Assembly: GCF_000719705.1 (NCBI RefSeq)
Contig: NZ_JOHO01000030.1
Location: forward strand, 14,564 to 78,563
Reading direction: 5' to 3'
Length of the DNA: 64,000 nt
Origin: Streptomyces sp. NRRL S-350
Lineage (GTDB): Bacteria > Actinomycetota > Actinomycetes > Streptomycetales > Streptomycetaceae
The notes under the pieces were generated by a model. It was not told the origin of the DNA. It saw only the letters and a list, made by a program, of their open reading frames with translations, and searched no databases. Of this stretch, positions 16,701 to 63,244 are shown piece by piece. Both the position numbers and the translations under genes were made by a program. Position 1 is the stretch's first letter. Each line of letters starts with the position of its first letter.

Positions 16701-16794
16701 ACAACAGGTAACGGGTAGCGGGTAACAGAAAACAGCGGACAGATAACAGATTTCGAAATCTGTTATCTGTCCGCTGTTACTTGTCAGCCGTTAC
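16701..16794. repeat. Heptad inverted repeat, copy A (48-bp perfect palindrome)
   Basis: This copy lies between two convergent genes. The left arm reads as consecutive 7-mers ACAACAG, GTAACGG, GTAGCGG, GTAACAG, AAAACAG, CGGACAG, ATAACAG, then ATTTC. The right arm reads GAAAT, CTGTTAT, CTGTCCG, CTGTTAC, TTGTCAG, CCGTTAC. Positions 16731-16778 are a perfect palindrome with 24-nt arms and no spacer. Just upstream (about 16659-16680) is another 7-nt run, AAGCCGG repeated. It probably works as a bidirectional terminator for the two flanking genes. Confidence 0.85.
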
Positions 16795-16798
16795 GCGG

Positions 16799-18169
16799 TC
16801 AGCGACCGGCGATCGCGTGCACGAACTTCGAGGCGTCGATGGTGCCCAGGCCGCTGGCGAGGTCGTAGCCCGCCGTGGCGTTGTAGCCGGTGACACCGTT
16901 CCAGCCGTTGTCGCCGTCCTTCACGTCCACGATGCCGCTCCACTGGCTCGGGAGCAGGCTCAGGCCGTACAGGCGCCAGTTGAGCTGGCCGAGGCGGTGG
17001 CCGGCGAGCTGGTCGGCGAGGGCGACGACACCCGAGAAGATCGGGGTGGCCTCGCTGGTGCCGCCGGTGAGGTGCCAGCCGACCGCGGTCGGGTCGTAGG
17101 ACTCGTAGGTCCAGGCCCCGCCGTCGACCGCCGCGCTCATGCTGATGTCGGGCGTGCCGCGGTGGTTGCCGGTGACGTTGGCGACGCCCGCCTGGTACCA
17201 CGGCCGCTCGAAGATGCCGGAGACGCCGCCGCCGCCGGCGCCGGACTGGTCGTGCCACACCTTGTCGGCCGCGGTGCGCTTGCCGGAGTCGTCCAGCGTG
17301 AGCTGGGTGCCGCCGATGGAGGTGACCAGCGGGTCCGAGGACGGCCAGGAGTTGACCTTGTACGGGTAGAGGTCGGTGCCGTTCTCCTTCGCGTCGGTGG
17401 CACCGTTGTCGCCGGACGCGGCGAGCACCGTCACGTTGCGGTCGGCGGCGGCCTGGAAGGCGTAGCGCAGGTCGGTCAGGGACTTGAAGTCGCCCTTGTC
17501 GTACCCGGGGAAGGTGTTCTCGGTCGCGCCGAAGCTCTGCGAGATGACGTCGCCGCGGCCGGACTTGATGAGGGCCTTCTCGGCGTCCATCATCTCGGGC
17601 AGGCCGGTGGTGCCCTCGGTCTCGGCGACTCCGGTCTCGACCAGGACGATGTGCGCGTCGGGGGCGACCGCGTGGGCGTACTCGACGTCCAGGGTGGTCT
17701 CGCCGGCCCAGCCCGTGTGGTCGGGGTTCTTCGGGTCGAAGACGGGGACGTTGCCCCACTTGACCACCTCGACGTTGGTGTCCGGGATGCCCCACTGCTT
17801 GTCGAAGACCTCCAGGTCGTGCTGGATGGTCGGCGAGCCGAAGGAGTCGACGATGACGATCGTGCGTCCCTTGCCGGTGATCCCCTGGTCGTACAGCGGG
17901 TTCAGGTTGTAGGCCGCGCGGTACTGCAGCGGGGAGTAGCAGTGGAGGCCGATCTGGCTGACGCACTGGGTGGTGGTCAGCGGGGCGGGGCGCGCCTGGG
18001 CGTTGTGGTGCCCGAAGGAGGCGGGGCGGACGTGGACGCCCGTGAGGTCGTGCGAGGGGGCGGCGGTCGCGGCGCCGGCGGCCGGTACGGCGATGGTGCC
18101 GGCGGTCAGAGCGGTGGCTCCGACGGCGAGCAGAGCCAGGGCGCGGCGGAGGGGAGCGGGGCTGCCCAT
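16799..18169 (-). CDS. Secreted sedolisin-family (S53) serine-carboxyl peptidase
   Basis: This 456-aa protein starts at ATG 18169, behind an AAGGAG site 5 nt upstream. Signal peptide: RRALALLAVGATALTAGTIA to AGAATAAPS. The sedolisin catalytic residues are visible: Glu and Asp in GWAGETTLDVEYAHA (E-x3-D), the oxyanion Asp in AASGDNGA and the nucleophile Ser (residue 372) in TGGTSEATPIF. The C-terminal DLASGLGTID fits the calcium site. Only about 50 residues separate the signal peptide from the catalytic core, so the usual ~180-residue pro-domain is absent. Acid-active extracellular proteolysis is expected. Its stop abuts repeat copy A. Confidence 0.92.
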   Translation of the reverse strand: MGSPAPLRRALALLAVGATALTAGTIAVPAAGAATAAPSHDLTGVHVRPASFGHHNAQARPAPLTTTQCVSQIGLHCYSPLQYRAAYNLNPLYDQGITGKGRTIVIVDSFGSPTIQHDLEVFDKQWGIPDTNVEVVKWGNVPVFDPKNPDHTGWAGETTLDVEYAHAVAPDAHIVLVETGVAETEGTTGLPEMMDAEKALIKSGRGDVISQSFGATENTFPGYDKGDFKSLTDLRYAFQAAADRNVTVLAASGDNGATDAKENGTDLYPYKVNSWPSSDPLVTSIGGTQLTLDDSGKRTAADKVWHDQSGAGGGGVSGIFERPWYQAGVANVTGNHRGTPDISMSAAVDGGAWTYESYDPTAVGWHLTGGTSEATPIFSGVVALADQLAGHRLGQLNWRLYGLSLLPSQWSGIVDVKDGDNGWNGVTGYNATAGYDLASGLGTIDASKFVHAIAGR

Positions 18170-18313
18170 GGAACTCCTTGGGACGCAGGGCCCGACCTGG
18201 TCCGGTCGGGTCGGTTGGGCCATCCCATCGAGTGCCACATGATCATGCCATAGTCATTTGGTGGGGTCATACGATCAAGGTCATGGTCATGCTCGGCCAC
18301 GAGAAAAGGTAAA

Positions 18314-18353
18314 GGCCGTCCCAGGTGAAGGTAACCCTGCACCTGGGACGGCC
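18314..18353 (-). terminator. Terminator hairpin between reductase and protease genes
   Basis: A 14-bp perfect stem (GGCCGTCCCAGGTG and its complement) encloses a 12-nt loop. It lies about 100 nt downstream of the reductase stop on the minus strand and upstream of the protease promoter region, so it separates the two minus-strand units. The remaining intergenic sequence (18170-18313) is AT-richer and probably carries the protease promoter. Confidence 0.8.
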
Positions 18354-18451
18354 ATCTGATGACACGTCAGTGATATTCAATGAATATCAAGCGTATCCAC
18401 TGGGGGCCGGTCGGTTCAACCAGGACCCCTGGAAATTCCGGATCACCCGGA

Positions 18452-19210
18452 CTATCGGGCCCCGCCGTTGACGTACAGGGTCTGCCCGCTGACGTACGAG
18501 GCGTCCTCGCTCGCCAGGAAGGCGACCACCGACGCCACCTCCTCCGGCTGCCCGACCCGGCGCAGCGGCGTCCGGGCGGCGACCTCGGTCTGGTGGTCCT
18601 CGGCGGTGCTGCCGACCCGCTCGGCGGTGGCCGCGGTCATGGCGGTGGCGATGTACCCGGGGGCGACGGCGTTGACGTTGATGTTGAACGGCCCGAGCTC
18701 GATCGCCAGGGTCGCGGTGAGGCCCTGGATGCCGGCCTTGGCGGCCGCGTAGTTGGCCTGGCCCCGGTTGCCGAGGGCGGAGCGCGAGCTGAGCGAGACG
18801 ATCTTCCCGTACTTCTGCGCCACCATGTACTTCTGCGCGACGTGGCTGCAGTTGTACGCGCTGGTCAGGTTGACCGTCAGCACCGCGTCCCAGTCGGACT
18901 TGGGCATCTTGAAGAACAGGTTGTCCCGGGTGATCCCGGCGTTGTTGACCAGGATGTGCAGACCGCCGAGATCGGCCGCGACCTGCGCGAACACCGCGTC
19001 GACGGCGTCGTAGTCGGCCACGTCGCAGCCGTACGCCCGGGCGGTGCCGCCCTTGGCGGTGATCTCGGCGACCGTCCCGGCGGCCCGCTCGGCACTGAGG
19101 TCGACCACGGCGACCGCCGCGCCCTCCTCGGCCAGCAGCCGGGCGGTGGCCGCCCCGATGCCCTGTGCCGCGCCGGTCACCACGGCGACCTTCCCCGCGA
19201 AACGCCCCAT
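18452..19210 (-). CDS. fabG: FabG-like short-chain dehydrogenase/reductase (beta-ketoacyl or 3-hydroxyacyl type)
   Basis: This 252-aa protein starts at ATG 19210 with an AAGGAG site 5 nt upstream; an in-frame extension to 19270 would translate repeat copy B and is rejected. It is a classical SDR: TGAAQGIG coenzyme motif, NNAG strand motif, catalytic Ser in VSLSSRSALG, and YAAAK for the Tyr/Lys pair. The acidic VVDLS after strand 2 leans toward NAD(H) binding. FabG-like enzymes reduce 3-oxoacyl-ACP or act as 3-hydroxyacyl-CoA dehydrogenases; beside a thiolase and an acyl-CoA dehydrogenase, the latter is reasonable. It lies downstream of the thiolase, separated by repeat copy B. Confidence 0.85.
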   Translation of the reverse strand: MGRFAGKVAVVTGAAQGIGAATARLLAEEGAAVAVVDLSAERAAGTVAEITAKGGTARAYGCDVADYDAVDAVFAQVAADLGGLHILVNNAGITRDNLFFKMPKSDWDAVLTVNLTSAYNCSHVAQKYMVAQKYGKIVSLSSRSALGNRGQANYAAAKAGIQGLTATLAIELGPFNINVNAVAPGYIATAMTAATAERVGSTAEDHQTEVAARTPLRRVGQPEEVASVVAFLASEDASYVSGQTLYVNGGAR

Positions 19211-19232
19211 GTGAACTCCTTGGAAGAGTGTG

Positions 19233-19326
19233 AAGACGGCCGACGGATGACAGATTTCATCATCTGTCATCTGTCATCTGTCATCTGTCAGCCGTCGGCT
19301 GTTGCCTACTGCCCACTGCCTACTGC
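19233..19326. repeat. Heptad inverted repeat, copy B
   Basis: Heptads AAGACGG, CCGACGG, ATGACAG lead to the core ATTTC-ATCAT, followed by CTGTCAT three times, then CTGTCAG, CCGTCGG, CTGTTGC and CTACTGC-like units. The hairpin pairs GATGACAGAT with ATCTGTCATC around 6 nt, and CCGACGG can pair with CCGTCGG further out. The right arm is longer than the left. It lies between two genes read in the same direction (thiolase then reductase), so it may attenuate read-through within an operon. Confidence 0.85.
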
Positions 19327-19376
19327 CGTACTGCTGCCCTTCGGCCCGCTGTCCGCCGCCGGTCACCCGCCCGCGG

Positions 19377-20576
<1,200 letters not shown>

Positions 20577-20621
20577 GTCGTCGGGCTCCTTGTGAGGTGG
20601 GCGGGGATGCTCTTGCGGGGG

Positions 20622-21785: not shown

Positions 21786-21929
21786 GGCGGCTCTCCCGAC
21801 TCGGGCCCGGCGGTGGCTGCGGCTACGGCTGTGGCCGCGGCCTCGGATACGGCGACGGCTGCCGTGGCGGCGACGGCGCCGGCGATGCCGACTGCGGCTG
21901 CCACGGCTGTCACAGCGGCTCCGGGCGTT

Positions 21930-21948
21930 AAACTAGCGCTGCAAGTTT
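21930..21948. promoter_or_regulatory. Candidate TetR operator
   Basis: AAACTAGCGCTGCAAGTTT is a 19-bp imperfect palindrome (AAACT...AGTTT, with central GC/GC also symmetric; 14 of 19 positions match the reverse complement). It is the only AT-rich island between the divergent acyl-CoA dehydrogenase and TetR genes, where a TetR dimer would control both. Binding is inference. Confidence 0.55.
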
Positions 21949-22050
21949 TATGGAGGGACTGTAGCCCCGGCCGGCCCGCGCTGGGAAGGGGCACCTGCCA
22001 GAATCGGTCCCCACCGCACCCGACCGGAGGAACCGGAGGCAGTCGCCGAG

Positions 22051-22695: not shown

Positions 22696-22702
22696 CGCCG
22701 CC

Positions 22703-30787: not shown

Positions 30788-32023
30788 TCACGGCAGGTCG
30801 AGGCGCGCCAGCCGCTCCAGGGCGGTGGCCAGGGTCGAGCCCGGCAAGGCGTAGTTCAGGCGCAGCGAGCCCCGGCCGCCCGGGCCGAACTCGGCCCCGT
30901 CGGTGGCTTCGAGGCCGGAGCGCTCCAGCAGTGCCCGCCGGGCCGTACCCGGCGGCAGGCCGAGGGCGGCGGCGTCCACCCAGAGCAGGTACGAGGCCTG
31001 CGGGGCCGACCGGACGGCGGCCCCGAGCCGGTCGGTGAGCCGGGCCCGGGCGGCGGCGAGGTGGGCGAGCAGCGCGTCCAGCCACGGGCCGCCTTCGCGC
31101 AGCGCCGCCTGCTGCACGGTCTGCTCCAGCAGGCCGCCCTCCCAGAGGCCGTAGCCGGCCAGGGCGTCGGCGAACCGGGTGCGTAGCCCCGGGTCGGGCA
31201 CGAGGGCGAAACTGCTGGGGATACCGGAGCAGTTGAAGGTCTTGCCCACGGAGTTGAGGCTGACGGTGGATCGGCGGTGCGCCGGGTCGACGGTGGTGAC
31301 GGCGACGGGGTGCGGGCGGCCGGGATGGGTGAGGTCGCCGTGCACCTCGTCCGAGACCAGCAGTGCGCCCGCCTCCGCCGCCCGCTCGGCCAGCGCGCGC
31401 AGCCCCTCGGCGGGCCAGACCCGGGCGGAGGGGTTGTGCGGGCTGCTCAGCAGGACGGCGGCGGTGGGGCGGGGGAGCGGACCGTCCGGTAGTCGGTACC
31501 CCTCCGGGCCGACGGGCAGGGGCAGTTCTCGGAAGTCGATGCGCGCGGCGCGGCACAACTGCGCGAAGCCGCCCCACTCCGGGGTCGGGAACAGCACGGG
31601 TGCCTGCGGCCGGGGCGCTTCCGCCCGTACGATCTCCAGCAGGACGCGCAGCGTGGTGCGCGGGCCGCAGGGCAGCAGCAGGACCCAGTCCGGGTCCACC
31701 TCGGCGCCGTGCCGGGCGCGGTACCAGTCGGCCACCAGCGTGCGGCCGGCCGGGTCGCACGCCGTGTAGCCGTAGGCGCGGTGGCGGGCGCGCCGCTGCA
31801 GGGCGCGGGCGATGGCGGGCGGGCCGGGGAGGTCCATGTCGGCGAGGCCCATGGGGATCACGCCGGGGGCGGTCGCGCGGCTCCATTTGCTGCTGGCGGT
31901 GCCGGTGCGGTCGAAGGGGGAGTCGAAGCCGAAGGGAGCGTCGGGAGCGGGGGCGGGGGCGCGGCGAACAGATGACAGATTTCGAAATCTGTCATCTGTT
32001 CGCTGAAAGCTGTCATCTGTCAT
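30788..32023 (-). CDS. PatB/MalY-like PLP aminotransferase (C-S lyase type) with repeat-encoded N-terminus
   Basis: This 411-aa fold-type I PLP enzyme has FDSPFDRTGTASSKW at the N-terminus, LADMDLPGPPAI as in MalY/PatB, the LLSSPHNPSARVW and VSDEVHGDL motifs, and the PLP lysine in SVGKTFNCSGI. Family members are cystathionine beta-lyases or aminotransferases. The only start that keeps the fold is ATG 32023, which lies inside heptad repeat copy C; residues 2-21 are translated repeat. A near-perfect ribosome site GGAGGTGA sits 6 nt upstream and its GTGACAG part is itself a repeat unit. The start overlaps the SRPBCC stop. A cysteine conjugate lyase role, even in ergothioneine breakdown or synthesis (EgtE-like), is possible but unproven. 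Confidence 0.85.
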   Translation of the reverse strand: MTDDSFQRTDDRFRNLSSVRRAPAPAPDAPFGFDSPFDRTGTASSKWSRATAPGVIPMGLADMDLPGPPAIARALQRRARHRAYGYTACDPAGRTLVADWYRARHGAEVDPDWVLLLPCGPRTTLRVLLEIVRAEAPRPQAPVLFPTPEWGGFAQLCRAARIDFRELPLPVGPEGYRLPDGPLPRPTAAVLLSSPHNPSARVWPAEGLRALAERAAEAGALLVSDEVHGDLTHPGRPHPVAVTTVDPAHRRSTVSLNSVGKTFNCSGIPSSFALVPDPGLRTRFADALAGYGLWEGGLLEQTVQQAALREGGPWLDALLAHLAAARARLTDRLGAAVRSAPQASYLLWVDAAALGLPPGTARRALLERSGLEATDGAEFGPGGRGSLRLNYALPGSTLATALERLARLDLP

Positions 32024-32030
32024 CTGTCAC
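31965..32030. repeat. Heptad inverted repeat, copy C, overlapping a gene start
   Basis: In plus orientation: CGAACAG, ATGACAG, ATTTC then GAAAT, CTGTCAT, CTGTTCG, CTGAAAG, CTGTCAT, CTGTCAT, CTGTCAC. Positions 31964-32003 are a 40-bp perfect palindrome. On the minus strand the GTGACAG unit completes the Shine-Dalgarno sequence, the next ATGACAG supplies both the SRPBCC stop and the aminotransferase start, and the palindrome falls in codons ~7-20 of the aminotransferase. An mRNA hairpin here would shape translation of that gene. Confidence 0.85.
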
Positions 32031-32646
32031 CTCCCTCTGTCGTCCCGTGTGCCGCCCCGTGCGCCGCCCCGTGGGCCGCCCCGTGAATCGCGCCGCGGGC
32101 GGCCCCGTCCACCGACCCGGAAGCCGCCAGGTGCGCCGCCAGTCCGCGCCGCCCCCGGCGCATCATGATCGCGTGGTTGGCGCGGAACACCGGGTGCAGC
32201 GGCAGGGCGAGGCGGCGCAGCAGGGCCTTGCCGGGCCGGGTGTCCTCCTCGAACAGCACCCGGCTGCCCGCACTCCGGTCACCCGCGCCACCCGCGCCAC
32301 CTGCACTCCGGGCGCCCGCGCCGCCCGCGGCGCGCGTACGGCCCGCGTCGTCGGGGGAGTCCGCCGTCACCGTGAACCGCGACCAGCCCTCCAGGTCGCC
32401 CCGCATGACCGCCTCCAGCACCCCGGCGGCCGGGTCGCGCCGCCGCGCCTCCAGGCTGATCACCAGCCGGTACGGCAGCAGGGCGCGCACCACCACGTCC
32501 CCGGTCGTCTCGCCGGTCTCCCGCACCTCGCGGACTTCCGGCCACCAGAGCGGGTAGTTCCGGACGTCCTCCAGTGCCGCGTACACGACGGCCGCAGGTG
32601 CCGCGAGCCGCCACATTCCTCGGAAGCGGTAGTGGTTGGGATCCAC
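32020..32646 (-). CDS. SRPBCC-superfamily (polyketide cyclase/START-like) protein
   Basis: This 208-aa protein has a GTG start at 32646. The N-terminus YRFRGMWRLAAPAAVVYAALEDVRNYPLWWP is the usual SRPBCC beginning (shown in part: LEDVRNYPLWWPEV), and EGWSRFTVTA and RVLFEEDTRPG strands follow. Members bind hydrophobic ligands. Two low-complexity insertions stand out: AGGAGARSAGGAGGAGD in the middle and a C-terminal GAAHGAAHGAAHG run. It is coupled (ATGA overlap) to the aminotransferase downstream; a shared pathway is inference. Confidence 0.8.
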   Translation of the reverse strand: MDPNHYRFRGMWRLAAPAAVVYAALEDVRNYPLWWPEVREVRETGETTGDVVVRALLPYRLVISLEARRRDPAAGVLEAVMRGDLEGWSRFTVTADSPDDAGRTRAAGGAGARSAGGAGGAGDRSAGSRVLFEEDTRPGKALLRRLALPLHPVFRANHAIMMRRGRRGLAAHLAASGSVDGAARGAIHGAAHGAAHGAAHGTTEGGDR

Positions 32647-42435: not shown

Positions 42436-43311
42436 GTGATTGAGCACCTGAACCGGGCGATGGACCACATCGAACGGCACCTGGACGGCGAGATCGACGT
42501 GGCCGAGCTGGCACGCATCGCGATGACGTCGGAGTACCACTTCCGACGGCTGTTCTCGATGCTCGCCGGGATGCCGCTCTCGGAGTACGTGCGGCGTCGG
42601 CGGCTGACCGTCGCGGGGGCCGAAGTCCTGGACGGCGAACGGACGTTGCTCGACATCGCGGTCCGGTACGGGTACACCTCGGGGGAGGCGTTCGCCCGGG
42701 CGTTCCGGGCGATGCACGGCGTCGGGCCGGGGGAGGCCCGGCGGGACGGTGCGGTGCTCACCTCCCAGCCCCGGATGTCCTTCCGACTCGTCGTGGAAGG
42801 AAACAGCAGTATGGAATACCGGATCGTCGAGAAGCCGGACTTCCGGATCGTCGGAAAGAAGGCCCGGGTCACCCTGGTCTACCTGGGGATCAACCCGGAG
42901 ATAGCCGAGTTCATCAAGGGACTCGGCACGGAGACCGTCGAGCGGATCACCGCGCTCGCGGGGACGGACCCGGCCGGCATCGTGTCGGTGAGCGACGACT
43001 TCTCGCCCAACCGGGAGGAGGGGTCCGAACTCGACTACTGGCACGCGGTGGTGGCGCGCGAGGACGCCGTGGTCCCGGCGGACCTGGACGTCCTCGACGT
43101 CCCGGCCGGCACCTGGGCCGTGTTCACCAACGCCGGACCGTTCCCGGAGGCGCTGCAGAAGATGTGGGGGGACGTGGCCAGCCAGTGGTTCCCGTCCAAC
43201 CCGTACGAGGCCCGGCCTGGTCCGGAGATCCTGAGGACCCGGTTCGTCCCGGAGACGGGTGACACCGAGGCGGAGCTCTGGATCCCCGTGGCGCGGGCCG
43301 CGCGGGGCTGA
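42436..43311 (+). CDS. AraC-family regulator with GyrI-like ligand domain
   Basis: This 291-aa protein has a GTG start at 42436. An N-terminal AraC DNA-binding domain with two HTHs (LDGEIDVAELARIAMTSEYH; LLDIAVRYGYTSGEAFARAF; HGVGPGEAR) is joined to a C-terminal GyrI-like/effector-binding domain (MEYRIVEKPDFRIVGKKARV; DVPAGTWAVFTNAGPFPEAL; ELWIPV). This order is shared with Rob/SoxS-type multidrug-response regulators that bind amphipathic compounds. Target genes are not evident here. Followed by repeat copy D. Confidence 0.92.
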   Translation: MIEHLNRAMDHIERHLDGEIDVAELARIAMTSEYHFRRLFSMLAGMPLSEYVRRRRLTVAGAEVLDGERTLLDIAVRYGYTSGEAFARAFRAMHGVGPGEARRDGAVLTSQPRMSFRLVVEGNSSMEYRIVEKPDFRIVGKKARVTLVYLGINPEIAEFIKGLGTETVERITALAGTDPAGIVSVSDDFSPNREEGSELDYWHAVVAREDAVVPADLDVLDVPAGTWAVFTNAGPFPEALQKMWGDVASQWFPSNPYEARPGPEILRTRFVPETGDTEAELWIPVARAARG

Positions 43312-43370
43312 CCGACCGTACCGGGCCGCCGGGCCGTGCGGTGCCGGCGGCGCGGCGGCGCGGGGGCCGA

Positions 43371-43456
43371 CAAGTAACAGATGACAGCCGACAGCTGACA
43401 GAGTTCGAAATCTGTTATCTGTCGGCTGTCATCTGTCATCTGTCTTCTGTTACTTG
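43371..43456. repeat. Heptad inverted repeat, copy D, unequal arms
   Basis: Left arm: CAA, GTAACAG, ATGACAG, CCGACAG, CTGACAG, AGTTC (four heptads). Right arm: GAAAT, CTGTTAT, CTGTCGG, CTGTCAT, CTGTCAT, CTGTCTT, CTGTTAC, TTG (six heptads). The outer ends CAAGTAACAG and CTGTTACTTG are perfect complements although the arms differ by exactly two units. It lies between two plus-strand genes. Confidence 0.85.
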
Positions 43457-43599
43457 TTCGCCGCGCCCGTCGCCGGCCCTCCCCGCCCCGCCCGCAGCAC
43501 CCGCCCGTTCGGCTCACCAGCGCCCACCTCCCGCCCTCCCCGCCCCGCATCCTGGGCAGGGAGGGTCGGGGGCCGAGACCGAGCTGGAGAGCAGGACCC

Positions 43600-44364
43600 A
43601 TGAAGCAGACGTCCGTGACCACCAACGCCCCGTGCTGGGTCGAGCTGGGCACCTCCGACCCGACCGCCGCCAGGGCCTTCTACAGCGAGCTGTTCGGCTG
43701 GCGGGAGGACGACCGCTCGCGCCCGGCAGGCAGTGACTACGCCCAGATGCTGGTTGGCGACGCCCCGGCCGCCGCGATCACCCCGCGCTACGCGCCGCGG
43801 CAGCCGACCGCCTGGACGGTCTGCTTCGCGGTCGCCGACGCGGACGCCACCGCCGCGAGGATCGCGGAGTCCGGCGGCAGCATCCTCAAGGAGCCCACCG
43901 ACGTCCTGGACCACGGCCGCTTCGCGGTGGCCGCCGACCCGTCCCGCGCGGTCTTCATCCTCTGGCAGGCCCGCGCCTTCCGGGGCGCCGGGGTGTTCAA
44001 CGAGCCCGGCTCGCTCGGCTGGGTGGAACTGCTGACCCGCGACCCGGCCGGCGCGACCGCGTTCTACCCGTCGGTCTTCGGCTGGTCCGTCGCCCCGTCC
44101 GAGCACTACACCCAGTGGGGCCTGGCCGGCCGGGACTTCGGCGGCATGCTGGCGATGGACGACCGCTTCCCGCCCGAGGTGCCGCCGCACTGGCTGCCGT
44201 ACTTCGCGGTCCTCGACGCCGACGTCACCGTCAGCCGGGCGGTGACCCTCGGCGGGGACGTGCTGATGCCTGTCTTCGGCATGCCGGGCGGTCGGCGGAT
44301 CGCCGTGCTGCGCGACCCCCAGGGTGCCGCGTTCGGCGTCTACGCCTCCGGTACGGAGGGCTGA
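43600..44364 (+). CDS. Two-domain VOC (glyoxalase-like) family protein
   Basis: This 254-aa protein has two tandem VOC domains of about 120 residues: the first begins CWVELGTSDPTAARAFYSELF (key part ELGTSDPTAARAFY), the second GWVELLTRDPAGATAFYPSVF. The paired arrangement and PHWLPYFAVLDADVT match the actinobacterial group that includes mycobacterial CFP32-like proteins. Enzymatic activity is not predictable from motifs. The 3' end overlaps the convergent lnt gene by 25 nt. Confidence 0.88.
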   Translation: MKQTSVTTNAPCWVELGTSDPTAARAFYSELFGWREDDRSRPAGSDYAQMLVGDAPAAAITPRYAPRQPTAWTVCFAVADADATAARIAESGGSILKEPTDVLDHGRFAVAADPSRAVFILWQARAFRGAGVFNEPGSLGWVELLTRDPAGATAFYPSVFGWSVAPSEHYTQWGLAGRDFGGMLAMDDRFPPEVPPHWLPYFAVLDADVTVSRAVTLGGDVLMPVFGMPGGRRIAVLRDPQGAAFGVYASGTEG

Positions 44365-50099: not shown

Positions 50100-50225
50100 G
50101 CGCCCCGGGCCGGTGGAGGACGGCAGGAGTTCCTGGCTCCCGCGGCCGACCGGCTTACCGGTGAACCGCGGTCACAGTGGCGGGACCGCACCGGGCTTGC
50201 ACCGGCTTCCTCCCCTGCGCCGTCG
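50100..50225 (-). promoter_or_regulatory. Cobalamin (AdoCbl) riboswitch
   Basis: Read on the minus strand, the sequence contains the class-defining elements in order: GGAAGCCGGTGCAAGCCCGG, then CGGTCCCGCCACTGTGA, then the B12 box GGGAGCCAGGAACTCCTGCC. The spacing fits the canonical cobalamin aptamer core. Boundaries are approximate. It is 20-30 nt upstream of the leader ORF ribosome site of cobN. I find no equivalent in front of cobG, cbiD or cobL. Confidence 0.92.
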
Positions 50226-51812: not shown

Positions 51813-52435
51813 TCGAGTACGAAAAGGACGGCGCGTCCATCTACCGCCAGTCCTTTGCCACCATCCGCGCGGAGGCCGATCTGGCCGCCCTCCCGGCTGA
51901 CGTCTCCCAGGTCGCGGTGCGGATGATCCACGCCTGCGGGATGGTCGACCTGGTCGAGGACCTGGTGTACTCGCCCGGCGTGGTGGCCTCCGCGCGCGCC
52001 GCGCTGCACGCCGGTGCGCCGATCCTCTGTGACGTCAACATGGTTGCGAGCGGTGTGACCCGCAAGCGGCTGCCCGCCGACAACGAGGTCGTCTGCACCC
52101 TCACGGACCCGTCCGTGCCCGAACTCGCCCGGAAGATGGGCACCACCCGCAGCGCCGCGGCCATGGAGCTGTGGCTGCCCCGGCTGGAGGGTGCGGTGGT
52201 CGCCGTCGGCAACGCACCGACCTCGCTGTTCCGGCTGCTGGAGATGATCGAGGCGGGCGCGCCTCGACCGGCCGCGGTGATCGGCGTCCCGGTCGGCTTC
52301 ATCGGCGCCGCCGAGTCCAAGCAGGCCCTGGCCGAACACCCGTCCGGCCTGGAGCACCTGGTGGTGCGCGGCCGGCGCGGCGGCAGCGCGATCGCCGCCG
52401 CCGCCGTCAACGCGATTGCGAGCGAAGAAGAGTGA
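51809..52435 (+). CDS. cobH: Precorrin-8X methylmutase CobH/CbiC
   Basis: This 208-aa protein has a GTG start at 51809 overlapping cobG. The family signature is clear: [27 protein letters not shown] containing the catalytic His, [17 protein letters not shown], and [15 protein letters not shown]. It moves the C-11 methyl to C-12, forming hydrogenobyrinic acid. Overlaps cobIJ by 4 nt. Assignment is firm. Confidence 0.97.
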
Positions 52436-53973
52436 CGGAGCAGCAGAATCCGCCGGTGGGGCGCCTGTTCGGAGTCGGACTCGGCCCGGGCGACCCTTCG
52501 CTGGTGACCGTCCGCGCCGCCGAACTCATCGGCAAGGCCGACGTGGTGGCGTACCACAGCGCCCGGCACGGGCGGTCCATCGCGCGCTCGATCGCCGAAC
52601 GCTACCTGACGGGCGGTCAGGTCGAGGAGAAGCTGGTCTACCCGCTCACCGTCGAGACCACCGACCACCCGGGCGGCTACCGGGGCGCGCTGGACGACTT
52701 CTACGAGGAGGCCGCCGCCCGGTTGGCCGCCCACCTCGACGCCGGCCGCGACGTCGTGGTCCTCGCCGAGGGCGACCCGCTCTTCTACGGCTCCTACCAG
52801 CACATGCACAAGCGGCTGGCGCACCGCTACCCGACCGAGGTGGTGCCCGGCGTCACCTCCGTCAGCGCGGCGGCGGCCCGGCTCGGACAGCCGCTCACCG
52901 AGGCCGAGGAGACGCTCACCGTCATCCCGGGCACCCTGCCCGAGGAGGAACTGACGGCACGCATCGCGGCCGCGGACTCCGCCGTGATCATGAAGCTGGG
53001 CCGGACCTTCCCGGCCGTCCGCCGGGCCCTGGAACGGGCCGGACGCCTGGCCGACGCCCAGTACGTGGAGCGGGCCTACATGGCGGGGGAGCGCATCGCC
53101 CCGCTCGCGGAGGTCGACGGCGAGACGGTGCCGTACTTCGCGGTCGCGGTGCTGCCCAGCAAGGTCGCGGTGCTGCCCGGCCGGGTCGCGCCGCTGGAGC
53201 CCGAGGTCCGGCCGGCGGACGGCGCGGGCAGTGTGACCGTCGTCGGCACCGGGCCGGCCGGGCCGCTCTGGCTCACGCCCGAGGCGCGCGGCGCGCTGGC
53301 CGCGGCCACCGACCTCGTCGGCTACACCACCTACCTGGCCCGGGTGCCGGAACGCCCCGGGCAGCGGCGGCACGGCTCGGACAACAAGGTGGAGTCCGAG
53401 CGCGCCGAGTACGCCCTGGACCTCGCGCGGCGCGGCCACCGCGTCGCCGTGGTCTCCTCCGGCGACCCCGGCGTGTTCGCGATGGCCACCGCCGTCCTGG
53501 AGGTCGCCTGCGAGGAGGCCTACCGGGACGTTCCGGTGCGGGTCCTGCCGGGGATGACCGCCGCCCATGCGGCCGCCTCCCGCGCCGGCGCCCCGCTCGG
53601 GCACGACTACGCGGTGGTCTCGCTCTCGGACCGGCTCAAGCCCTGGGATGCGGTGGCCAAGCGGCTGCGCGCGGCCGCCGAGGCGGACCTGGTGCTCGCG
53701 CTGTACAACCCGGGTTCGAAGTCCCGGACCACCCAGGTCGGCCTCGCCCGGGACCTGCTGCTGGAGTACCGGGCGCCGGAGACCCCGGTGGTGATGGCGC
53801 GCGACGTCGGCGGCCCGACCGAGCGGGTGCGGATCGTCCGGCTGGGCGAGCTGGACCCGGCGCTGGTCGACATGCGGACCATCCTGCTGATCGGCTCCTC
53901 GCAGACCCGTGCGGTCGAGCGGGGCGGCGGTGTGGAGGTCGTCTGGACGCCTCGGCGCTACCCGGAGGCGTGA
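52432..53973 (+). CDS. cobIJ: Fused precorrin-2 C20- / precorrin-3B C17-methyltransferase CobI-CobJ
   Basis: This 513-aa protein has a GTG start at 52432. Two tetrapyrrole methylase domains: CobI (1-~265) with [31 protein letters not shown] and [14 protein letters not shown]; CobJ (~270-513) with [48 protein letters not shown] and [12 protein letters not shown]. The fusion is standard in actinobacteria. Both use SAM in steps either side of CobG. It ends the cobG-H-IJ operon, then repeat copy E. Confidence 0.97.
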
Positions 53974-53983
53974 CGGCGGTCGA

Positions 53984-54049
53984 GTGACGGATGGCAGCCG
54001 ACAGATTTCTCCATGGGTCAGCTGTCATCCGTCATCCGTCATCTGTCGC
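53984..54049. repeat. Heptad inverted repeat, copy E
   Basis: GTGACGG, ATGGCAG, CCGACAG, ATTTC, a 12-nt irregular centre, then CTGTCAT, CCGTCAT, CCGTCAT, CTGTCGC. The pairing is imperfect and the core GAAAT is lost. It lies between the convergent cobIJ and metallophosphoesterase genes, where it could terminate both. Confidence 0.8.
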
Positions 54050-54102
54050 CAGGCCGCCTGTCGGCCGTCAGCCGCCCGCTGCCCGGAGCTCGCCGCCCGC
54101 CG

Positions 54103-55851
54103 TCACCGGGTCGGCTTGGTGACCAGCAGCTCGGTGTTGTGGTCCTCGCCCGCGCCGAGCAGCGCCGTCGGCCGCCCGTTCGGGTCGTTGTACGACAGCT
54201 CGCGGTAGAGCGCCGCGAGGTTGGCGTCCGAGGTGCCGCCGAAGTCCGTTGCGTACGGCGCGGACGACTCGATCAGCGTGGTGAACAGCGAGAGCGTGCC
54301 GTCCCCGTTGTCCGCGACCTCGATGATCCGGCCGTGCTGCGGGTAGTCGATGTGGGAGGCGGTGTTGATCTCCCAGAACGCCCGCTCCGGCACGGCGTGA
54401 CCGTGCGGCGTGATCTTGTTCATGTGGGTGTGACCGTTCACCCACGCGACCACGTTCGGGTAGCGCTGGAGCAGCGCCACCAGCTCGTTCCCGTCGTGCC
54501 GCTTCTCGAAGATGTTGCGCGGGTCCGGCAGCAGGTTGCCCATGGTGTTGCTGGTGTGGTGGCTGAACAGCAGGATCACGTCGTCCGTGCTCCCGCCCGT
54601 CACCCTGCGTCCGTCGGCGTCGTACCAGTGCCCGCTGTGCGCCTGCAACTGCTTCTCCAGCCAGCGCAGTTGGGCGGTGCCCAGGGAGCCGTCGGCGAAT
54701 CCGGCCTGGTTGGTGGTGTCCAGGCTGATGCCCAGGACCTTCTCCGAGATGCGGAAGGTGTAGTAGAGCTTGCCGCTGTTCGCCATGTCCGAGGTGAAGC
54801 CGTGCCCGTACGGGCCGGCCCCGGTGGCCGCCGGGTCCAGGTGGGCCTTGGCGAACTCCTTGAGCGTGAACGGCTTGCGGCGCTCGTCCGGGGTGATCCG
54901 GCGCACCGCCTCGCCGTTCGCGATCAGCTTCGCCAGCAGCAGCACGGCGCCGGCCGGGTCGCGGCGCAGCGAGTCCATCAGCTGGGCGGCCGTCGCGTCG
55001 TCGCAGCCCTCCAGCTTGTACTGGCCGGTGTAGAGGTCGTTGAGCAGGCCGAGGTCCGGCAGCGAGCCCTCGATGCTGTCGTCGTGGTTGCCAACGGTCG
55101 TGTACCAGGGCGTACGCAGGCCCGGCGCGTCGAAGGGCCGGCCGGAGGCGGAGAGGAAGCCGGGTATCTGCGGGAAGCCCTTGGCCTTGTAGCCGTCGCT
55201 GTAGGCGAGTTCGGGGTTCCAGAAGGCCGAGTTGCCGGAGTTCTGCACGCCTTCGTAGCGGGTCGGGTCGCCGGTGTTCTGGGCCAGTCGGCCGCCGCCC
55301 ATGACCTTGAGGTACCAGTCGAGTTCGGCGAGTTCGTGGTTGTCCGTGTTGTCGCCGGTGGCCATCACCATGCTGAACGGCATTCCCGTGTAGGGGCCGC
55401 CGTCGAGCGAGTTGACCCGTTCGACGAGGGCCGACACACCCCGGGCGTTCAGGGCTTCCTGCGGCCGGTAGGCGCTGCCGTTGAACCGCGCCAGGTACTC
55501 GAAGCGCACCGGCGACTCGGTGTCCACCAGGTGCAGGTCGCTGAACTGGACGAAGCTGGCCAGGCCGGTGCGGCGGTCGTCCCGCCCGGTGCCCGGCGCC
55601 GCCAGGTCGCCGCGCACCACGAGCGGCCACCCGGGCCCGGCCGTCAGCCGCTTGTAGGTGCCGGTGCCGACCGGCGTGGCCACCTGCTCCAGCGTGGTCC
55701 CGGCGACCTTGACGGCCCGCGAGGCCGTGGCCGCCAGCGCCCGGTCGCGCGTCGCGGCTGACGAGAACTGCGCGCCCCCCAGCGACAAGGCCGACCACAC
55801 GGCGGCCACCGACGTACCCGTCAGGAACGTACGCCGACTCATCCCTGCCAC
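54103..55851 (-). CDS. Tat-exported metallophosphoesterase (TIGR03767-type)
   Basis: This ~582-aa protein has GTG 55851 with GGGGG 5 nt upstream; ATG 55842 inside is the alternative. The N-terminus SRRTFLTGTSVAAVWSAL is a Tat signal. Calcineurin-like metal motifs: QFSDLHLVD, MATGDNTDNHE, TVGNHDDS, LFSHHTSN and NGHTHMN. This fits the actinobacterial secreted metallophosphoesterase family; the substrate may be nucleotides or phosphodiesters. Between cob genes but convergent with them, so not part of the pathway. Confidence 0.9.
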   Translation of the reverse strand: MAGMSRRTFLTGTSVAAVWSALSLGGAQFSSAATRDRALAATASRAVKVAGTTLEQVATPVGTGTYKRLTAGPGWPLVVRGDLAAPGTGRDDRRTGLASFVQFSDLHLVDTESPVRFEYLARFNGSAYRPQEALNARGVSALVERVNSLDGGPYTGMPFSMVMATGDNTDNHELAELDWYLKVMGGGRLAQNTGDPTRYEGVQNSGNSAFWNPELAYSDGYKAKGFPQIPGFLSASGRPFDAPGLRTPWYTTVGNHDDSIEGSLPDLGLLNDLYTGQYKLEGCDDATAAQLMDSLRRDPAGAVLLLAKLIANGEAVRRITPDERRKPFTLKEFAKAHLDPAATGAGPYGHGFTSDMANSGKLYYTFRISEKVLGISLDTTNQAGFADGSLGTAQLRWLEKQLQAHSGHWYDADGRRVTGGSTDDVILLFSHHTSNTMGNLLPDPRNIFEKRHDGNELVALLQRYPNVVAWVNGHTHMNKITPHGHAVPERAFWEINTASHIDYPQHGRIIEVADNGDGTLSLFTTLIESSAPYATDFGGTSDANLAALYRELSYNDPNGRPTALLGAGEDHNTELLVTKPTR

Positions 55852-57634: not shown

Positions 57635-57641
57635 CTGGCGA

Positions 57642-59171: not shown

Positions 59172-59193
59172 CCCCCGCCCCCGCCGCCCGGCC

Positions 59194-59700: not shown

Positions 59701-59725
59701 TCCGACTCCCTCCGGCCCGCCGCCG

Positions 59726-60229: not shown

Positions 60230-60284
60230 CGGGCCATCCTGCCGGACGGTCGGCGGCGCCGCCCGGCTGTTTCACCGGCCGGGC

Positions 60285-61025: not shown

Positions 61026-61786
61026 CACGCCCCGCAGGGCTCGTGCGGGCGCTCGCGGTCCGCCGAGTAGAGGTGGCTGTCGCGGAAGTGCTCGGCGGCC
61101 AGGGTGCGGCCGACGATGATGACGGCGGTGCGGACCACACCGGCGGCCTTGACCTGTTCGGCGATGTCGCCGACGGTGCCGCGCAGCACCAGCTCGTCGG
61201 GGCGGCTGGCCATGGCGACGACGGCGGCGGGGCAGTCGGCGCCGTAGTGCGGGAGCAGCTGCTCGACCACGTCGTCGACGTACCCGGCGGCCAGGTGCAG
61301 CACGAGCAGGGCGCCGCTGCGGCCGAGGGTTGCGAGGTCCTCGCCCTCGGGCATCGGGGTGGCGCGCTTGGCGATGCGCGTCAGGATGACGGTCTGGCCG
61401 ACGGTCGGCACGGTCAACTCCCGCTTCAGCGCTGCCGCCGCGGCGGCGAAGGCGGGCACGCCGGGGACGACCTCGTACGGGATCCCGGCCGCGTCCAGTC
61501 GGCGCATCTGCTCGGCGACGGCGGAGAACACGGACGGGTCGCCGGAGTGCAGCCGGGCCACGTCGTGGCCCTCGCGGTGGGCTCGGGCCATCTCGTCGAT
61601 GATCAGGTCCAGTGTCATCCGGGCGGTGTCGATGAGCCGGGCGCCGGGCGGGCACTCGTCCAGCAGTTCGCGCGGGACGAGGCTGCCGGCGAACAGGCAG
61701 ACGTCGGCGCGGGCCAGGATGCGCTGGCCGCGCAGGGTGATCAGGTCGGCGGCGCCCGGGCCGGCGCCGATGAAGTAGACGGTCAC
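61025..61786 (-). CDS. cobM: Precorrin-4 C11-methyltransferase CobM/CbiF
   Basis: This 253-aa protein has a GTG start at 61786 overlapping cobL. Tetrapyrrole methylase with VYFIGAGPGAADLITLRG, LHSGDPSVFSAVAEQM, EVVPGVPAFAAAAAAL and VILTRIAKRATPMPEGED, the last being typical of CobM. It methylates C-11 of precorrin-4 to precorrin-5. Confidence 0.96.
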   Translation of the reverse strand: MTVYFIGAGPGAADLITLRGQRILARADVCLFAGSLVPRELLDECPPGARLIDTARMTLDLIIDEMARAHREGHDVARLHSGDPSVFSAVAEQMRRLDAAGIPYEVVPGVPAFAAAAAALKRELTVPTVGQTVILTRIAKRATPMPEGEDLATLGRSGALLVLHLAAGYVDDVVEQLLPHYGADCPAAVVAMASRPDELVLRGTVGDIAEQVKAAGVVRTAVIIVGRTLAAEHFRDSHLYSADRERPHEPCGA

Positions 61787-63036
61787 GAGGCGTCCTCCTG
61801 GGGGGCTTCGGGCTTGCGGGTGTCGGGCTTGACGGCGGACCACTGGGTGACCGGCATGGCTTGACGCCACCCGGTGAAGCCGCCCACCGGGACGGCGTGG
61901 GCGACGGCGAGCTTGACGAGCTCGCCGCCGTGGCGCCGGTACCACTCGGCGAGCAGGGCCTCGGACTCCAGCGTCACGGTGTTGGCGACCAGTCGGCCGC
62001 CCGGGCGCAGGTCCGCCCAGCAACGGTCCAGCAGCCCTGGCGCGGTGAGGCCGCCGCCGATGAACACGGCGTCGGGGGAGGGGAGTCCGGCGAGGGCGGC
62101 GGGGGCCGGTCCGGTCACCACGCGCAGCCGGGGCACACCGAGCGCGGCGGCGTTGCGGGCGATCCGCTCGGCCCGGACAAGGTCGCGCTCGACGGTGACG
62201 GCCCGGCAGTCGCGGTGGGCACGCAGCCACTCGATGGCGATCGAGCCGGAACCGCCGCCGACGTCCCAGAGCAGTTCGCCGGGGGAGGGGGCGAGGGCGG
62301 CCAGGGTGGCGGCGCGGACGTGCCGTTTGGTGAGCTGGCCGTCGCTCTCGTACGCGGTGTCGGGCAGGCCGGGGACGAGGGACGTGCGGGGGCCGTCGCC
62401 GAGGTCGACGGCGATGACGTTCAAAGGGGCGCCCGGCGGGTGCGGCCAGCCGTCGGCGGGGCCGGCCAGGTGCCGCTCGGCGGGAGCGCCGAGCTGTTCA
62501 AGCACGCGCAGCCGGGCGGTGCCGTAGCCGCGGGCCGTGAGCAGCGCGGCGACGGCGGCCGGGGTGGCGGCGTCGGCGCTGAGCACCAGCAGGCGGCGGC
62601 CGGGGTGGAGGGCGAACGTGAGGGAGTCGAGCGGGCGGCCGACCAGGCTGACCACCTCGGTCGCCTCCAGGGGCCAGCCGAGCCGGGCGCAGGCGTAGGC
62701 GACGGAGGAGGGGTGTGGCAGCACGCGCAGGTGTTCGGCGCCGACGGTCTCGGCGAGGGTGCGGCCGATGCCGTAGAACATGGGGTCGCCGCTGGCCAGG
62801 ACGGCGACGCGGCGGTCGGCGTGGGCGGCGAGGAGGCCGGGGACGGCCGGGCGTAGCGGGGAGGGCCAGGGGACGCGCTCGGCGGACACCTCCTCGCGGG
62901 GCAGCAGGTCCAGCTGGCGGGGGCCGCCGACGACCACCTCGGCGTTCCGCAGCGCGGCGCGGCCGGTGGCGGCGAGGCCGGGCCAGCCGTCGGCCCCGAT
63001 ACCGACGACGGTGATCGGGGATGGCAGCTCGGGCAC
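61783..63036 (-). CDS. cobL: Precorrin-6Y C5,15-methyltransferase (decarboxylating) CobL
   Basis: This 417-aa protein has GTG 63036 with AGGAG 7 nt upstream; the in-frame extension to 63216 translates repeat copy F and is rejected. Fusion of a CbiE-type methylase (1-~205: ITVVGIGADGWPGL, LASGDPMFYGIGRTL, HPSSVAYACARLGWP) with a CbiT-type methyltransferase (~225-417: LTKRHVRAATLAAL, LWDVGGGSGSIAIEWL). It methylates C-5 and C-15 and decarboxylates the C-12 acetate, giving precorrin-8. Heads the cobLMK operon. Confidence 0.96.
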   Translation of the reverse strand: MPELPSPITVVGIGADGWPGLAATGRAALRNAEVVVGGPRQLDLLPREEVSAERVPWPSPLRPAVPGLLAAHADRRVAVLASGDPMFYGIGRTLAETVGAEHLRVLPHPSSVAYACARLGWPLEATEVVSLVGRPLDSLTFALHPGRRLLVLSADAATPAAVAALLTARGYGTARLRVLEQLGAPAERHLAGPADGWPHPPGAPLNVIAVDLGDGPRTSLVPGLPDTAYESDGQLTKRHVRAATLAALAPSPGELLWDVGGGSGSIAIEWLRAHRDCRAVTVERDLVRAERIARNAAALGVPRLRVVTGPAPAALAGLPSPDAVFIGGGLTAPGLLDRCWADLRPGGRLVANTVTLESEALLAEWYRRHGGELVKLAVAHAVPVGGFTGWRQAMPVTQWSAVKPDTRKPEAPQEDAS

Positions 63037-63062
63037 CGGGTGGCTCCTCCTCGTTCGGGGGC

Positions 63063-63080
63063 GCCAGCGTTTCCGCTGGC
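63063..63080 (-). other. Hairpin in the cobL 5' leader
   Basis: GCCAGCG-TTTC-CGCTGGC lies 27 nt upstream of the cobL start. Next to it (63081-63100) is a GCC/GGC-rich segment with GCCAGGTAGGCTGCC on the minus strand. The segment could be a structured leader, but the cobalamin aptamer core motif is absent. Confidence 0.45.
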
Positions 63081-63157
63081 CGGGGCAGCCTACCTGGCAG
63101 TATCCGGGCGATTCGCGGGCGGTTCGGACTGGCTTCCTGGGGGGTGTCAGCTGAGCG

Positions 63158-63244
63158 CTGACAACTGACAGGTGACAGATAACAGCTGACAGATAACAGA
63201 TTTCAAACTCTGTCATCTGTGATCTGTTGCCGGTTGCCGGTCAC
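63158..63244. repeat. Heptad inverted repeat, copy F
   Basis: Left arm: CTGACAA, CTGACAG, GTGACAG, ATAACAG, CTGACAG, ATAACAG, ATTTC. Right arm: AAACT, CTGTCAT, CTGTGAT, CTGTTGC, CGGTTGC, CGGTCAC. Strict 7-nt phase throughout. It lies between two minus-strand genes, downstream of the gamma-glutamylcyclotransferase-like gene and upstream of the cobL leader. Confidence 0.85.

What the first reader, a model, noticed from the sequence alone, without database searches (positions are those of the whole stretch)
16701..63244. Dispersed family of inverted repeats built from 7-nt units
Six intergenic loci (16701, 19233, 31965, 43371, 53984, 63158) share one design: heptads NNRACAG in tandem, a core ATTTC/GAAAT, then heptads CTGTYNN. 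Units differ inside and between copies, but the 7-nt phase, the RACAG/CTGTY half and usually the core are kept, and arms differ by whole units. That suggests growth by unit duplication under pressure to stay self-complementary. No known REP, ERIC, MITE or terminator family I know has a 7-nt repeated stem. They could be modular terminators, RNA stabilisers or protein-binding arrays. Since 7 is not a multiple of 3, translation through them gives seven-residue peptide repeats ([11 protein letters not shown]).
Basis: partly seen in the sequence, partly recalled or inferred. Interest (0 to 1): 0.9.

Follow-up and report, generated by a model that had tools for sequence, protein, structure and literature searches.

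The report
Repressor operator multiplied across one chromosome block
In one group of Kitasatospora soil bacteria, what looks like the DNA landing site of a single gene-regulating protein has been copied up to about thirty times, grown into tandem seven-letter arrays, and planted behind genes in one stretch of roughly 400,000 letters around that protein's own gene, a pattern we did not find described.

Summary
All six arrays exist; five have RACAG and CTGTY on both sides of the core, the sixth (53983-54056) is degenerate. They belong to a Kitasatospora family (26-33 clusters in 400-kb stretches of three relatives, 16 in this draft genome) confined to one chromosome block: 358-612 kb in six well-assembled genomes, 2.1-2.8 Mb from dnaA in the four where this could be measured.

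The core is not of unknown kind. It matches a palindrome (GACAGAT-ATTGAA-ATCTGTC) at the promoter of an aldo/keto-reductase–TetR operon. Among 30 genomes of other Streptomycetaceae genera it is at 17 of 17 loci holding that TetR, and a genome-wide pattern hits once in 16 of those 17 and never in the 13 without it. The 7-nt half-site GACAGAT/ATCTGTC is the "heptad", and tetR lies inside the block in six of six genomes. So the arrays look like a locally amplified operator with half-sites repeated in tandem.

Arrays sit mostly just after stop codons. The inner 38 nt stays palindromic through paired changes, without the wobble bias expected of RNA; outer heptads keep phase, not pairing. TetR binding and any function are inferred. 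The claim that no 7-nt stem is known is wrong (Nostoc intron P6b), but this family was found in no paper searched.

The parts
16698..16803 (.). Array 1, between convergent genes (14675-16633 + and 16799-18169 -); core 16750-16759 ATTTCGAAAT; perfect inner palindrome
   Evidence: called terminator-like on both strands
19233..19316 (.). Array 2, after the 3' end of a thiolase gene (19377-20576 -), upstream of a FabG-type reductase gene (18452-19210 -); core 19254-19263 ATTTCATCAT, tail of CTGTCAT heptads
31962..32035 (.). Array 3, upstream of a PatB-like C-S lyase gene (30788-31861 -, below that model's cut-off), overlapping the 3' end of a weakly predicted ORF 32020-32586 -; core 31979-31988 ATTTCGAAAT
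43367..43461 (.). Array 4, between tandem genes (42436-43311 +, AraC-like; 43600-44364 +, KbpA-like; both below their models' cut-offs); core 43402-43411 AGTTCGAAAT
53983..54056 (.). Array 5, degenerate: between convergent genes (52432-53973 + CobI/CobJ, 54103-55809 - metallophosphoesterase); core 54005-54014 ATTTCTCCAT, right half-site lost
   Evidence: (2 mismatches)
63157..63229 (.). Array 6, upstream of a tetrapyrrole-methylase gene (61783-63036 -) and after the 3' end of a weakly scored GGACT gene (63298-63723 -); core 63200-63209 ATTTCAAACT

Best explanation
The arrays are amplified copies of the operator of a TetR-family repressor. Shown: a palindrome GACAGAT-N6-ATCTGTC lies at the promoter of an aldo/keto reductase (AKR)-tetR operon and, in 30 genomes of other genera, is found only where that tetR is. 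Shown: in the K. aureofaciens/xanthocidica group, sites with the same dyad number about 16-33 per genome examined, nearly all in one block that contains the tetR gene. Inferred: the operator was copied locally, its 7-nt half-site was repeated in tandem on both sides (hence the heptads, NNRACAG = ATGACAG and CTGTYNN = CTGTCAT), and copies survived mostly just behind stop codons, where they disturb no promoter. Inferred: TetR dimers still bind the core of most arrays, so the block carries a cluster of up to about 30 extra operators near the gene that makes the protein. This would buffer (titrate) the repressor and concentrate it in that part of the nucleoid. The long palindromes may also end transcripts in both directions, as a side effect or an adopted role. 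Confidence by step: origin from the operator 0.85; TetR still binds most arrays 0.6; repressor cluster as the main selected role 0.35. The figure below is for origin plus present binding.
For: (1) Footprint: 17 of 30 genomes of other Streptomycetaceae genera (30 of the 179 seen) have the TetR (E<=1e-30). All 17 loci carry the palindrome near the AKR start (two one-letter variants, L354 and L361). Genome-wide, RACARATTTCNNNATYTGTY (widened after to admit L354) has exactly one hit in 16 of those 17 and none in the 13 without the TetR (the miss is L361's variant). (2) In 8 of 13 low-copy loci sampled from repeat-poor Kitasatospora the site is syntenic, before the AKR gene; in 6 of these 8 its TTGAAA is followed after 17 nt by CATAGT (reading these as -35/-10 boxes is mine). 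AKR and TetR assignments: Pfam PF00248; PF00440+PF17935. (3) tetR lies inside the block in 6 of 6 genomes compared (G007, G018, G035, G037, G045, G065). All 20 of 70 genus genomes with >=7 hits have tetR, as do 62 of 70 overall. (4) Array cores match operator cores: two sampled arrays (L339, L347) carry exactly GACAGATTTCAATATCTGTC. (5) The commonest heptad, CTGTCAT (164 of 687), is the half-site in phase; one operator in another genus (L363) is already flanked by tandem half-sites. (6) Recognition helix: SHSSVYR in 7 of 7 sampled genomes of the main array clade; SHGS/SHGT in 9 of 9 other Kitasatospora and 16 of 16 other-genus proteins that the search pattern matched. The same 7 have AACAG..CTGTT at the AKR operator; 6 others printed have GACAG..CTGTC, and G031 AACAG..CTGTC. 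(7) DNA-level symmetry: in 72 orthologous pairs of inner 38-mers, positions changed on both sides and paired in both number 91, changed on both sides otherwise 18; with the wrong heptad as partner 8 and 68.
Against: No binding or expression data exist here. One-sided changes are also common (131, against 197 with the wrong partner). The heptad tails (third heptad outward) are not palindromic (15 of 73, 4 of 44 identical words), and a TetR dimer needs no such tails. Placement near 3' ends (39 of 44 tandem arrays; median 26.5 nt after the stop) fits terminators as well as operators. The helix and operator change is one evolutionary event, so its coincidence with the expansion is a single observation; 12 of the 20 genomes with >=7 hits were not sampled for it; G031 has 10 hits but keeps SHGS; and the helix also varies without expansion (YRFF in G026, G058, G064). 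A repeat-poor relative (G064) has a weak array 8 kb from its tetR, and several repeat-poor species have one to three extra sites, some megabases away, so confinement is not absolute across the genus. Core conservation is partly by construction, because arrays were selected for RACAG, CTGTY and GAAAT. The block is asymmetric about tetR: by exact-core hits about 315-361 kb on the far side and 43-263 kb on the other in the six genomes.
Confidence: 0.58

Rival explanations
1. Bidirectional transcription terminators or 3'-end hairpins. The palindromes took over from ordinary G+C-rich stem-loops at gene ends in this block; the operator was only the seed sequence, and TetR binding is irrelevant today.
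For: 47 of 100 intergenic arrays lie between convergent genes against 227 of 1276 gene pairs; only 9 are divergent. 39 of 44 tandem arrays are nearer the upstream stop codon, median 26.5 nt. Strong folds. Ordinary stems >=12 bp are rarer in convergent plus tandem intergenic regions of array genomes (79 of 705) than in the syntenic blocks of two repeat-poor relatives (68 of 361), Fisher p = 0.001. Array 1 is called terminator-like on both strands.
Against: The stem deficit is carried by tandem regions (p = 0.002; convergent alone p = 0.10), and within array genomes regions with and without arrays do not differ (7 of 94, 72 of 611, p = 0.29). No G.U excess on the transcribed strand: 15 G.U against 17 A.C in tandem contexts. 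Upstream and downstream arms do not differ (4.33 and 3.92 units, p = 0.21). In one search only one of the three arrays scanned passed the terminator pattern. At compact orthologous sites the repeat-poor relatives have a stem >=10 in 6 of 13 and 4 of 9, not clearly above their convergent background (33 of 87). Terminators give no reason for confinement to one block around tetR.
Confidence: 0.35
2. Neutral or selfish palindrome: the operator served as a seed that replication slippage and template switching multiplied and kept symmetric, with no function. Copies survive where they do least harm.
For: Symmetry is best near the centre and fades outward, as hairpin-templated correction would give. 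Two-sided changes often replace whole words. Words two units apart are repeated. Arms differ by whole units. Sites come and go: 46-85% of comparable sites are shared between array genomes, by pair. Gene-end placement is what purifying selection alone would leave.
Against: Many sites are shared by species whose block proteins differ by about 10%, so copies persist. Orthologous cores are more alike (0.83) than non-orthologous ones (0.75), yet differ with the dyad kept. The repressor's recognition helix changed in the same clade.
Confidence: 0.3
3. A chromosome-domain mark: TetR bound to the arrays organises or tethers this part of the linear chromosome, as SlmA and MatP do with regional sites in E. 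coli.
For: 26-33 clusters per 400 kb, one per 12-15 kb, in three genomes, in one block at a similar distance from dnaA (2.1-2.8 Mb) in four genomes. Similar far edge about 315-361 kb from tetR in six genomes. SlmA, structurally TetR-like, binds a palindrome found 50 times in E. coli, absent from Ter, and is described there as not acting on gene expression (PMC3116907 passages). phmmer finds SlmA among weak PDB relatives (E 2.3e-5), as expected for any TetR-fold protein.
Against: No cellular role is known to me for this TetR beyond the AKR operon. The clade is narrow and most other Kitasatospora do without arrays. The shared edge is one inherited observation. The protein shows no extra domain. 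SlmA itself is reported as a gene activator in Vibrio (title and abstract start of PMC5519180 in the listing), so regional sites need not mean a structural role.
Confidence: 0.15
4. A conventional mobile repeat (REP/RAYT, MITE or CRISPR-like) with its own transposase.
For: Many short palindromic copies between genes, some lineage-specific sites.
Against: Copies lie in one block instead of genome-wide. No Rfam family matched the arrays at gathering score. Copies differ in length by heptads and have no fixed ends. A RAYT-type transposase was not searched for.
Confidence: 0.04

Closest known systems
Operators of TetR-family regulators (single palindromes at own or neighbouring promoters; general knowledge, recalled)
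   Same: The array core is the same 20-nt dyad as the site at the AKR-tetR promoter, found only with that tetR in 30 genomes of other genera.
   Different: Here 16-33 copies, mostly behind genes instead of in promoters, with tandem half-site tails.
SlmA binding sites and matS (macrodomain-specific sites of E. coli; PMC3116907, passages seen)
   Same: Tens of specific palindromic sites with a regional distribution; SlmA is structurally TetR-like.
   Different: SlmA sites are absent from Ter, sparse in Left and Right, and lie mainly in coding regions; matS is a 13-bp motif repeated 23 times in Ter. Heptad arrays are not mentioned in the passages seen, and whether this TetR binds is untested.
[quoted passage not shown]
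   Same: A stem built of 7-nt units whose number varies, with complementary arms.
   Different: Inside one group I intron at one locus, with unit TDNGATT or NNTGAGT; not a multi-copy intergenic family.
Heptanucleotide-repeat elements of Geobacter metallireducens (PMC2700814, passages seen)
   Same: Several loci with four or five tandem 7-nt repeats, proposed regulatory.
   Different: Other unit sequences (GGGACCG, MTYCTGA); regional confinement is not mentioned in the passages seen.
REP/BIME palindromes of enterobacteria (recalled, not looked up)
   Same: Short palindromes after stop codons, strongly folding.
   Different: Genome-wide, 35-40 nt fixed units, no 7-nt phase, linked to RAYT transposases.

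Membership tests
TetR operator | Palindrome at the promoter of the tetR gene or its operon, conserved with it | tested here: met
   For the founder site: 17 of 17 loci in other genera and syntenic in 8 of 13 low-copy Kitasatospora loci sampled. The window arrays themselves are not at the tetR promoter.
TetR operator | Site occurs only in genomes with the regulator | tested here: met
   1 hit in 16 of 17 genomes with TetR, 0 in 13 without (the miss is a one-letter variant seen). Tested in 30 genomes of other genera, not in the 8 genus genomes without a TetR match.
TetR operator | Physical binding by the protein | not testable with these tools
   -
Macrodomain sites (SlmA, matS type) | Confined to part of the chromosome | tested here: met
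   One block in 6 of 6 well-assembled genomes for the exact core; with 2 mismatches one further place is listed in each of G007 and G018, about 0.29 Mb from dnaA.
Macrodomain sites (SlmA, matS type) | Bound by a protein that shapes the chromosome or division | not testable with these tools
   -
Intrinsic terminator | Stable stem behind a stop codon | tested here: met
Intrinsic terminator | T-rich tract after the stem | tested here: not met
RNA structural element | Wobble (G.U) pairs preferred over A.C on the transcribed strand | tested here: not met
   15 against 17 in tandem contexts (small sample).
REP/RAYT | Genome-wide spread | tested here: not met
REP/RAYT | Associated RAYT transposase | not tested
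Any described Rfam family | Match at gathering score | tested here: not met
   Only a cobalamin riboswitch in the window.

The most novel reading that the evidence does not exclude
A one-operon repressor has been turned into a chromosome-region organiser. In one Kitasatospora clade its operator was multiplied up to about thirtyfold in the roughly 400 kb around its own gene while its recognition helix and operator ends changed together, so that the protein now coats and marks, or gathers into one focus, a defined arm segment of the chromosome. If so, this is a recent, traceable birth of a macrodomain system from an ordinary TetR repressor.
Probability: 0.17. Interest if true: 0.95.

Novelty: new variant of a known kind. 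Interest (0 to 1): 0.8.

Why it matters
It ties a 'mystery repeat' to what looks like a specific regulator's operator and shows, with the conserved single site and repeat-poor sister species at hand, how a binding site can multiply in one region only. That makes two open questions testable in harmless soil bacteria: how regional protein-binding site systems (SlmA, MatP) arise, and whether repressors act as local sponges near their own gene. It also offers an explanation of the 7-nt period: it is the length of an operator half-site.

Tried and rejected
RNA-level selection: tested by wobble counts on the transcribed strand and by arm asymmetry; both negative. One-to-one replacement of ordinary terminators at orthologous sites: not shown (6 of 13 and 4 of 9 compact sites have a stem >=10), although ordinary stems are rarer overall in array genomes. 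Genome-wide heptad arrays: simple tandem runs such as CTGTCGC exist elsewhere (G009, G035, own contigs C27 and C136), but the reversed-pattern control gives such hits too, so they were set aside. Transfer of a whole block from a donor full of repeats: no candidate donor seen; one exact 20-mer, scanned over 84,980 species genomes, gave 84 stretches (loci L168-L251), of which three lie outside Kitasatospora/'Streptomyces'-named records (one Marinobacter, two Clostridia MAGs). Other forms of the core were not scanned there. A gene inside the block present only in array genomes: 21 candidates in G018, a good part of them next to the outer edge of the fetched stretches, none pursued. Unit growth by single heptads: not supported; lag 2 is. 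Genes were called with a home-made codon-position scorer, so gene borders and start codons are approximate. Of the 105 clusters, 16 had no recognisable 10-nt core and were left out of the pairing tests; of 87 reciprocal orthologous pairs, 72 had cores on both sides. Pairs of genomes share sites, so the covariation and occupancy counts are not independent events.


Full report
WHAT IS THERE. Each has a 10-nt core flanked by heptads, RACAGNN-type on the left and CTGTYNN-type on the right. Array 5 is degenerate. In-phase runs of two or more units are about 50 times more frequent than in Markov sequences of the same composition (4 and 5 against 0.08 and 0.10). The window (74% G+C) is G000:C30:14564-78563 of an 8.78-Mb draft.

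A REGIONAL FAMILY. RACAGATTTCNNNATCTGTY (no mismatch, both strands summed, so a symmetric site counts twice) has >=7 hits in 20 of 70 genus genomes, 1-4 in 34 and none in 16; the reversed pattern has none. The symmetric 20-mer occurs in 16 of 249 Streptomycetaceae genomes examined, all 16 in the own genus. In the six well-assembled genomes whose hits were listed in full, all lie in one block: G007 1.672-2.065 Mb, G018 5.089-5.447, G065 0.983-1.381, G035 5.863-6.333, G045 0.676-1.288, G037 0.227-0.660. In the four with dnaA on the same contig the block is 2.1-2.8 Mb from it. With two mismatches allowed, one further place is listed in each of G007 and G018, about 0.29 Mb from dnaA; a site of the same sequence in the own genome lies upstream of topA (TopA by its sequence, recalled). 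In the own genome 16 of 17 places lie on contigs C6, C30 and C61, whose arrays are syntenic with the single block of the relatives. A cluster rule finds 30, 26 and 33 clusters in the 400-kb stretches of G007, G065 and G018 and 16 in the own contigs.

HISTORY. A CobN tree of 30 of the 69 genus genomes with a match puts 16 of its 17 genomes with >=7 hits in one clade (support 100/99); G031 stands apart among repeat-poor relatives. G035, G056 and G057 are not in the tree. In the 400-kb syntenic stretches of two repeat-poor relatives, G064 and G058, the cluster rule finds 0, and 0 of 57 and 0 of 60 site comparisons are occupied (sites counted once for each array genome). Between array genomes most comparable sites are shared, 46-85% by pair: for example G000 to G007 12 of 16, G007 to G018 22 of 29, G018 to G065 15 of 26, G018 to G000 12 of 26. 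A softer scan shows one weak array in G064, 8 kb from its tetR, heptads beside its AKR operator, and one heptad palindrome with other words in G058.

ANATOMY. Of 105 clusters, 89 have a recognisable core. Identical 4-nt words face each other in 56 of 89 first and 47 of 83 second heptad pairs, but in only 15 of 73 third and 4 of 44 fourth pairs. So the element is a 38-nt palindrome with tails that keep phase without pairing. Across 72 orthologous pairs of inner 38-mers, two-sided changes that keep pairing outnumber other two-sided changes 91 to 18; with the wrong heptad as partner the counts are 8 and 68. One-sided changes number 131 and 197. There is no wobble preference on the transcribed strand (15 G.U, 17 A.C) and no strand asymmetry of the arms. 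That favours a constraint or mechanism acting on DNA over one acting on RNA, though the sample is small.

WHERE IN THE GENE MAP. 47 of 100 intergenic arrays lie between convergent genes (background 227 of 1276 pairs), 44 between tandem and 9 between divergent genes; 3 more fall in predicted genes and 2 at an edge. 39 of 44 tandem arrays are nearer the upstream stop codon, at a median of 26.5 nt.

THE LINK TO TETR. Of 13 low-copy loci sampled from repeat-poor Kitasatospora, eight lie at one syntenic locus with GACAGATTTCAATATCTGTC or a near variant, and this locus corresponds to an array inside the block. It lies before an aldo/keto reductase gene followed by a TetR-family gene. In 30 genomes of 16 other genera, 17 have the TetR. 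All 17 loci carry the palindrome; a pattern widened to admit one variant hits once in 16 of them and never in the 13 without TetR. I read this as the operator. Its half-site GACAGAT/ATCTGTC is 7 nt long, and the commonest heptad in the arrays is exactly that half-site in phase. One operator outside the genus is already flanked by two further half-sites on one side and one on the other (L363). tetR lies in the block in all six genomes. Array density is 4.4-5.0 per 50 kb within about 50 kb of the operator and 2.3-3.3 out to about 350 kb (three genomes, fetched stretches only); beyond the block the exact core has no hit in these genomes.

CO-CHANGE OF PROTEIN AND SITE. In the seven sampled genomes of the main array clade the recognition-helix segment reads SHSSVYR; in nine other Kitasatospora and sixteen other-genus proteins it reads SHGS or SHGT. 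The operator ends changed in the same seven from GACAG..CTGTC to AACAG..CTGTT. This is one event on the tree and therefore suggestive only. G031 has 10 hits with the old residue, and its relatives show another change (YRFF) without expansion.

HOW IT MOST LIKELY WORKS. Step 1 (shown): an operator-like dyad conserved with tetR. Step 2 (inferred): local copying plus tandem repetition of half-sites; words two units apart are repeated above chance (65 of 348, shuffled mean 38.8), neighbouring words are not, so 14-nt steps are likely. Step 3 (inferred): copies persist behind stop codons. Step 4 (inferred): TetR still binds the cores. Step 5 (open): the effect is titration, a domain mark, transcript ends, or nothing. 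Ordinary stems are rarer at gene ends in array genomes (79 of 705 against 68 of 361, p = 0.001; tandem p = 0.002, convergent p = 0.10), which keeps the terminator role alive.

WHAT IS KNOWN. Stems built of 7-nt repeats are known in the Nostoc tRNA-Leu intron (passages of PMC4476775 and PMC3488679), and heptanucleotide elements in Geobacter (passages of PMC2700814). Regional palindromic sites of a TetR-like protein are known for SlmA (passages of PMC3116907). No paper in the held library contains any of five array or operator sequences as printed text. The listed titles and abstract starts for Kitasatospora with repeat and palindrome (15 of 24 listed), heptanucleotide repeats (2 of 2), TetR with AKR operators (12 of 40), amplified binding sites (5 of 5) and REP with Streptomyces (10 of 191) show no description of it. 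The library lacks most subscription journals.

VERDICT. A real, unusual, regionally confined repeat family whose core is most probably a TetR operator. Origin is well supported; present binding and function are not shown.

Noticed in passing
L010 1501-1520 (G000:C23:51890-51909) and L058 1501-1520: A second operator-like site (GACGGATTTCAAGATCTGTC / AACAGATTTCAGAATCTGTC) lies upstream of topA (DNA topoisomerase I, by its sequence), outside the block, in the own genome and in repeat-poor G015: a possible second target of the same TetR.
   Followed up: partly
L052 around 1500 (G005), L061 around 1500 (G019), L056 around 1500 (G010): Repeat-poor Kitasatospora have a few extra heptad palindromes; in G005 one (L052) lies between ORFs that look convergent, about 188 kb from tetR. 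G005 has another extra core hit about 23 kb from tetR; the G019 site (L061) is more than 5 Mb away and the G010 site (L056) is on another contig.
   Followed up: partly
G058:C1:7495614: A palindrome with a different heptad (GACTGAT) and the same design in a repeat-poor relative, so heptad palindromes may arise more than once.
   Followed up: no
window 50127-50212 (-): Cobalamin riboswitch (RF00174) upstream of a cobN gene, ordinary.
   Followed up: no
G064:C1:2314168, 2452138, 2469786; G058:C1:7263632: Several intergenic palindromes built of CTTTGCAAAG units in both repeat-poor relatives: perhaps another multi-site regulator's operators.
   Followed up: no
own genome C27:62735-62767, C136:1416-1455; G009:C1:5621248-5621294; G035:C1:844762-844808: Plain tandem heptads (CTGTCGC, CTGTTGC, CTGTCCG) with no core seen in the matches, apparently unrelated to the block.
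   Followed up: no
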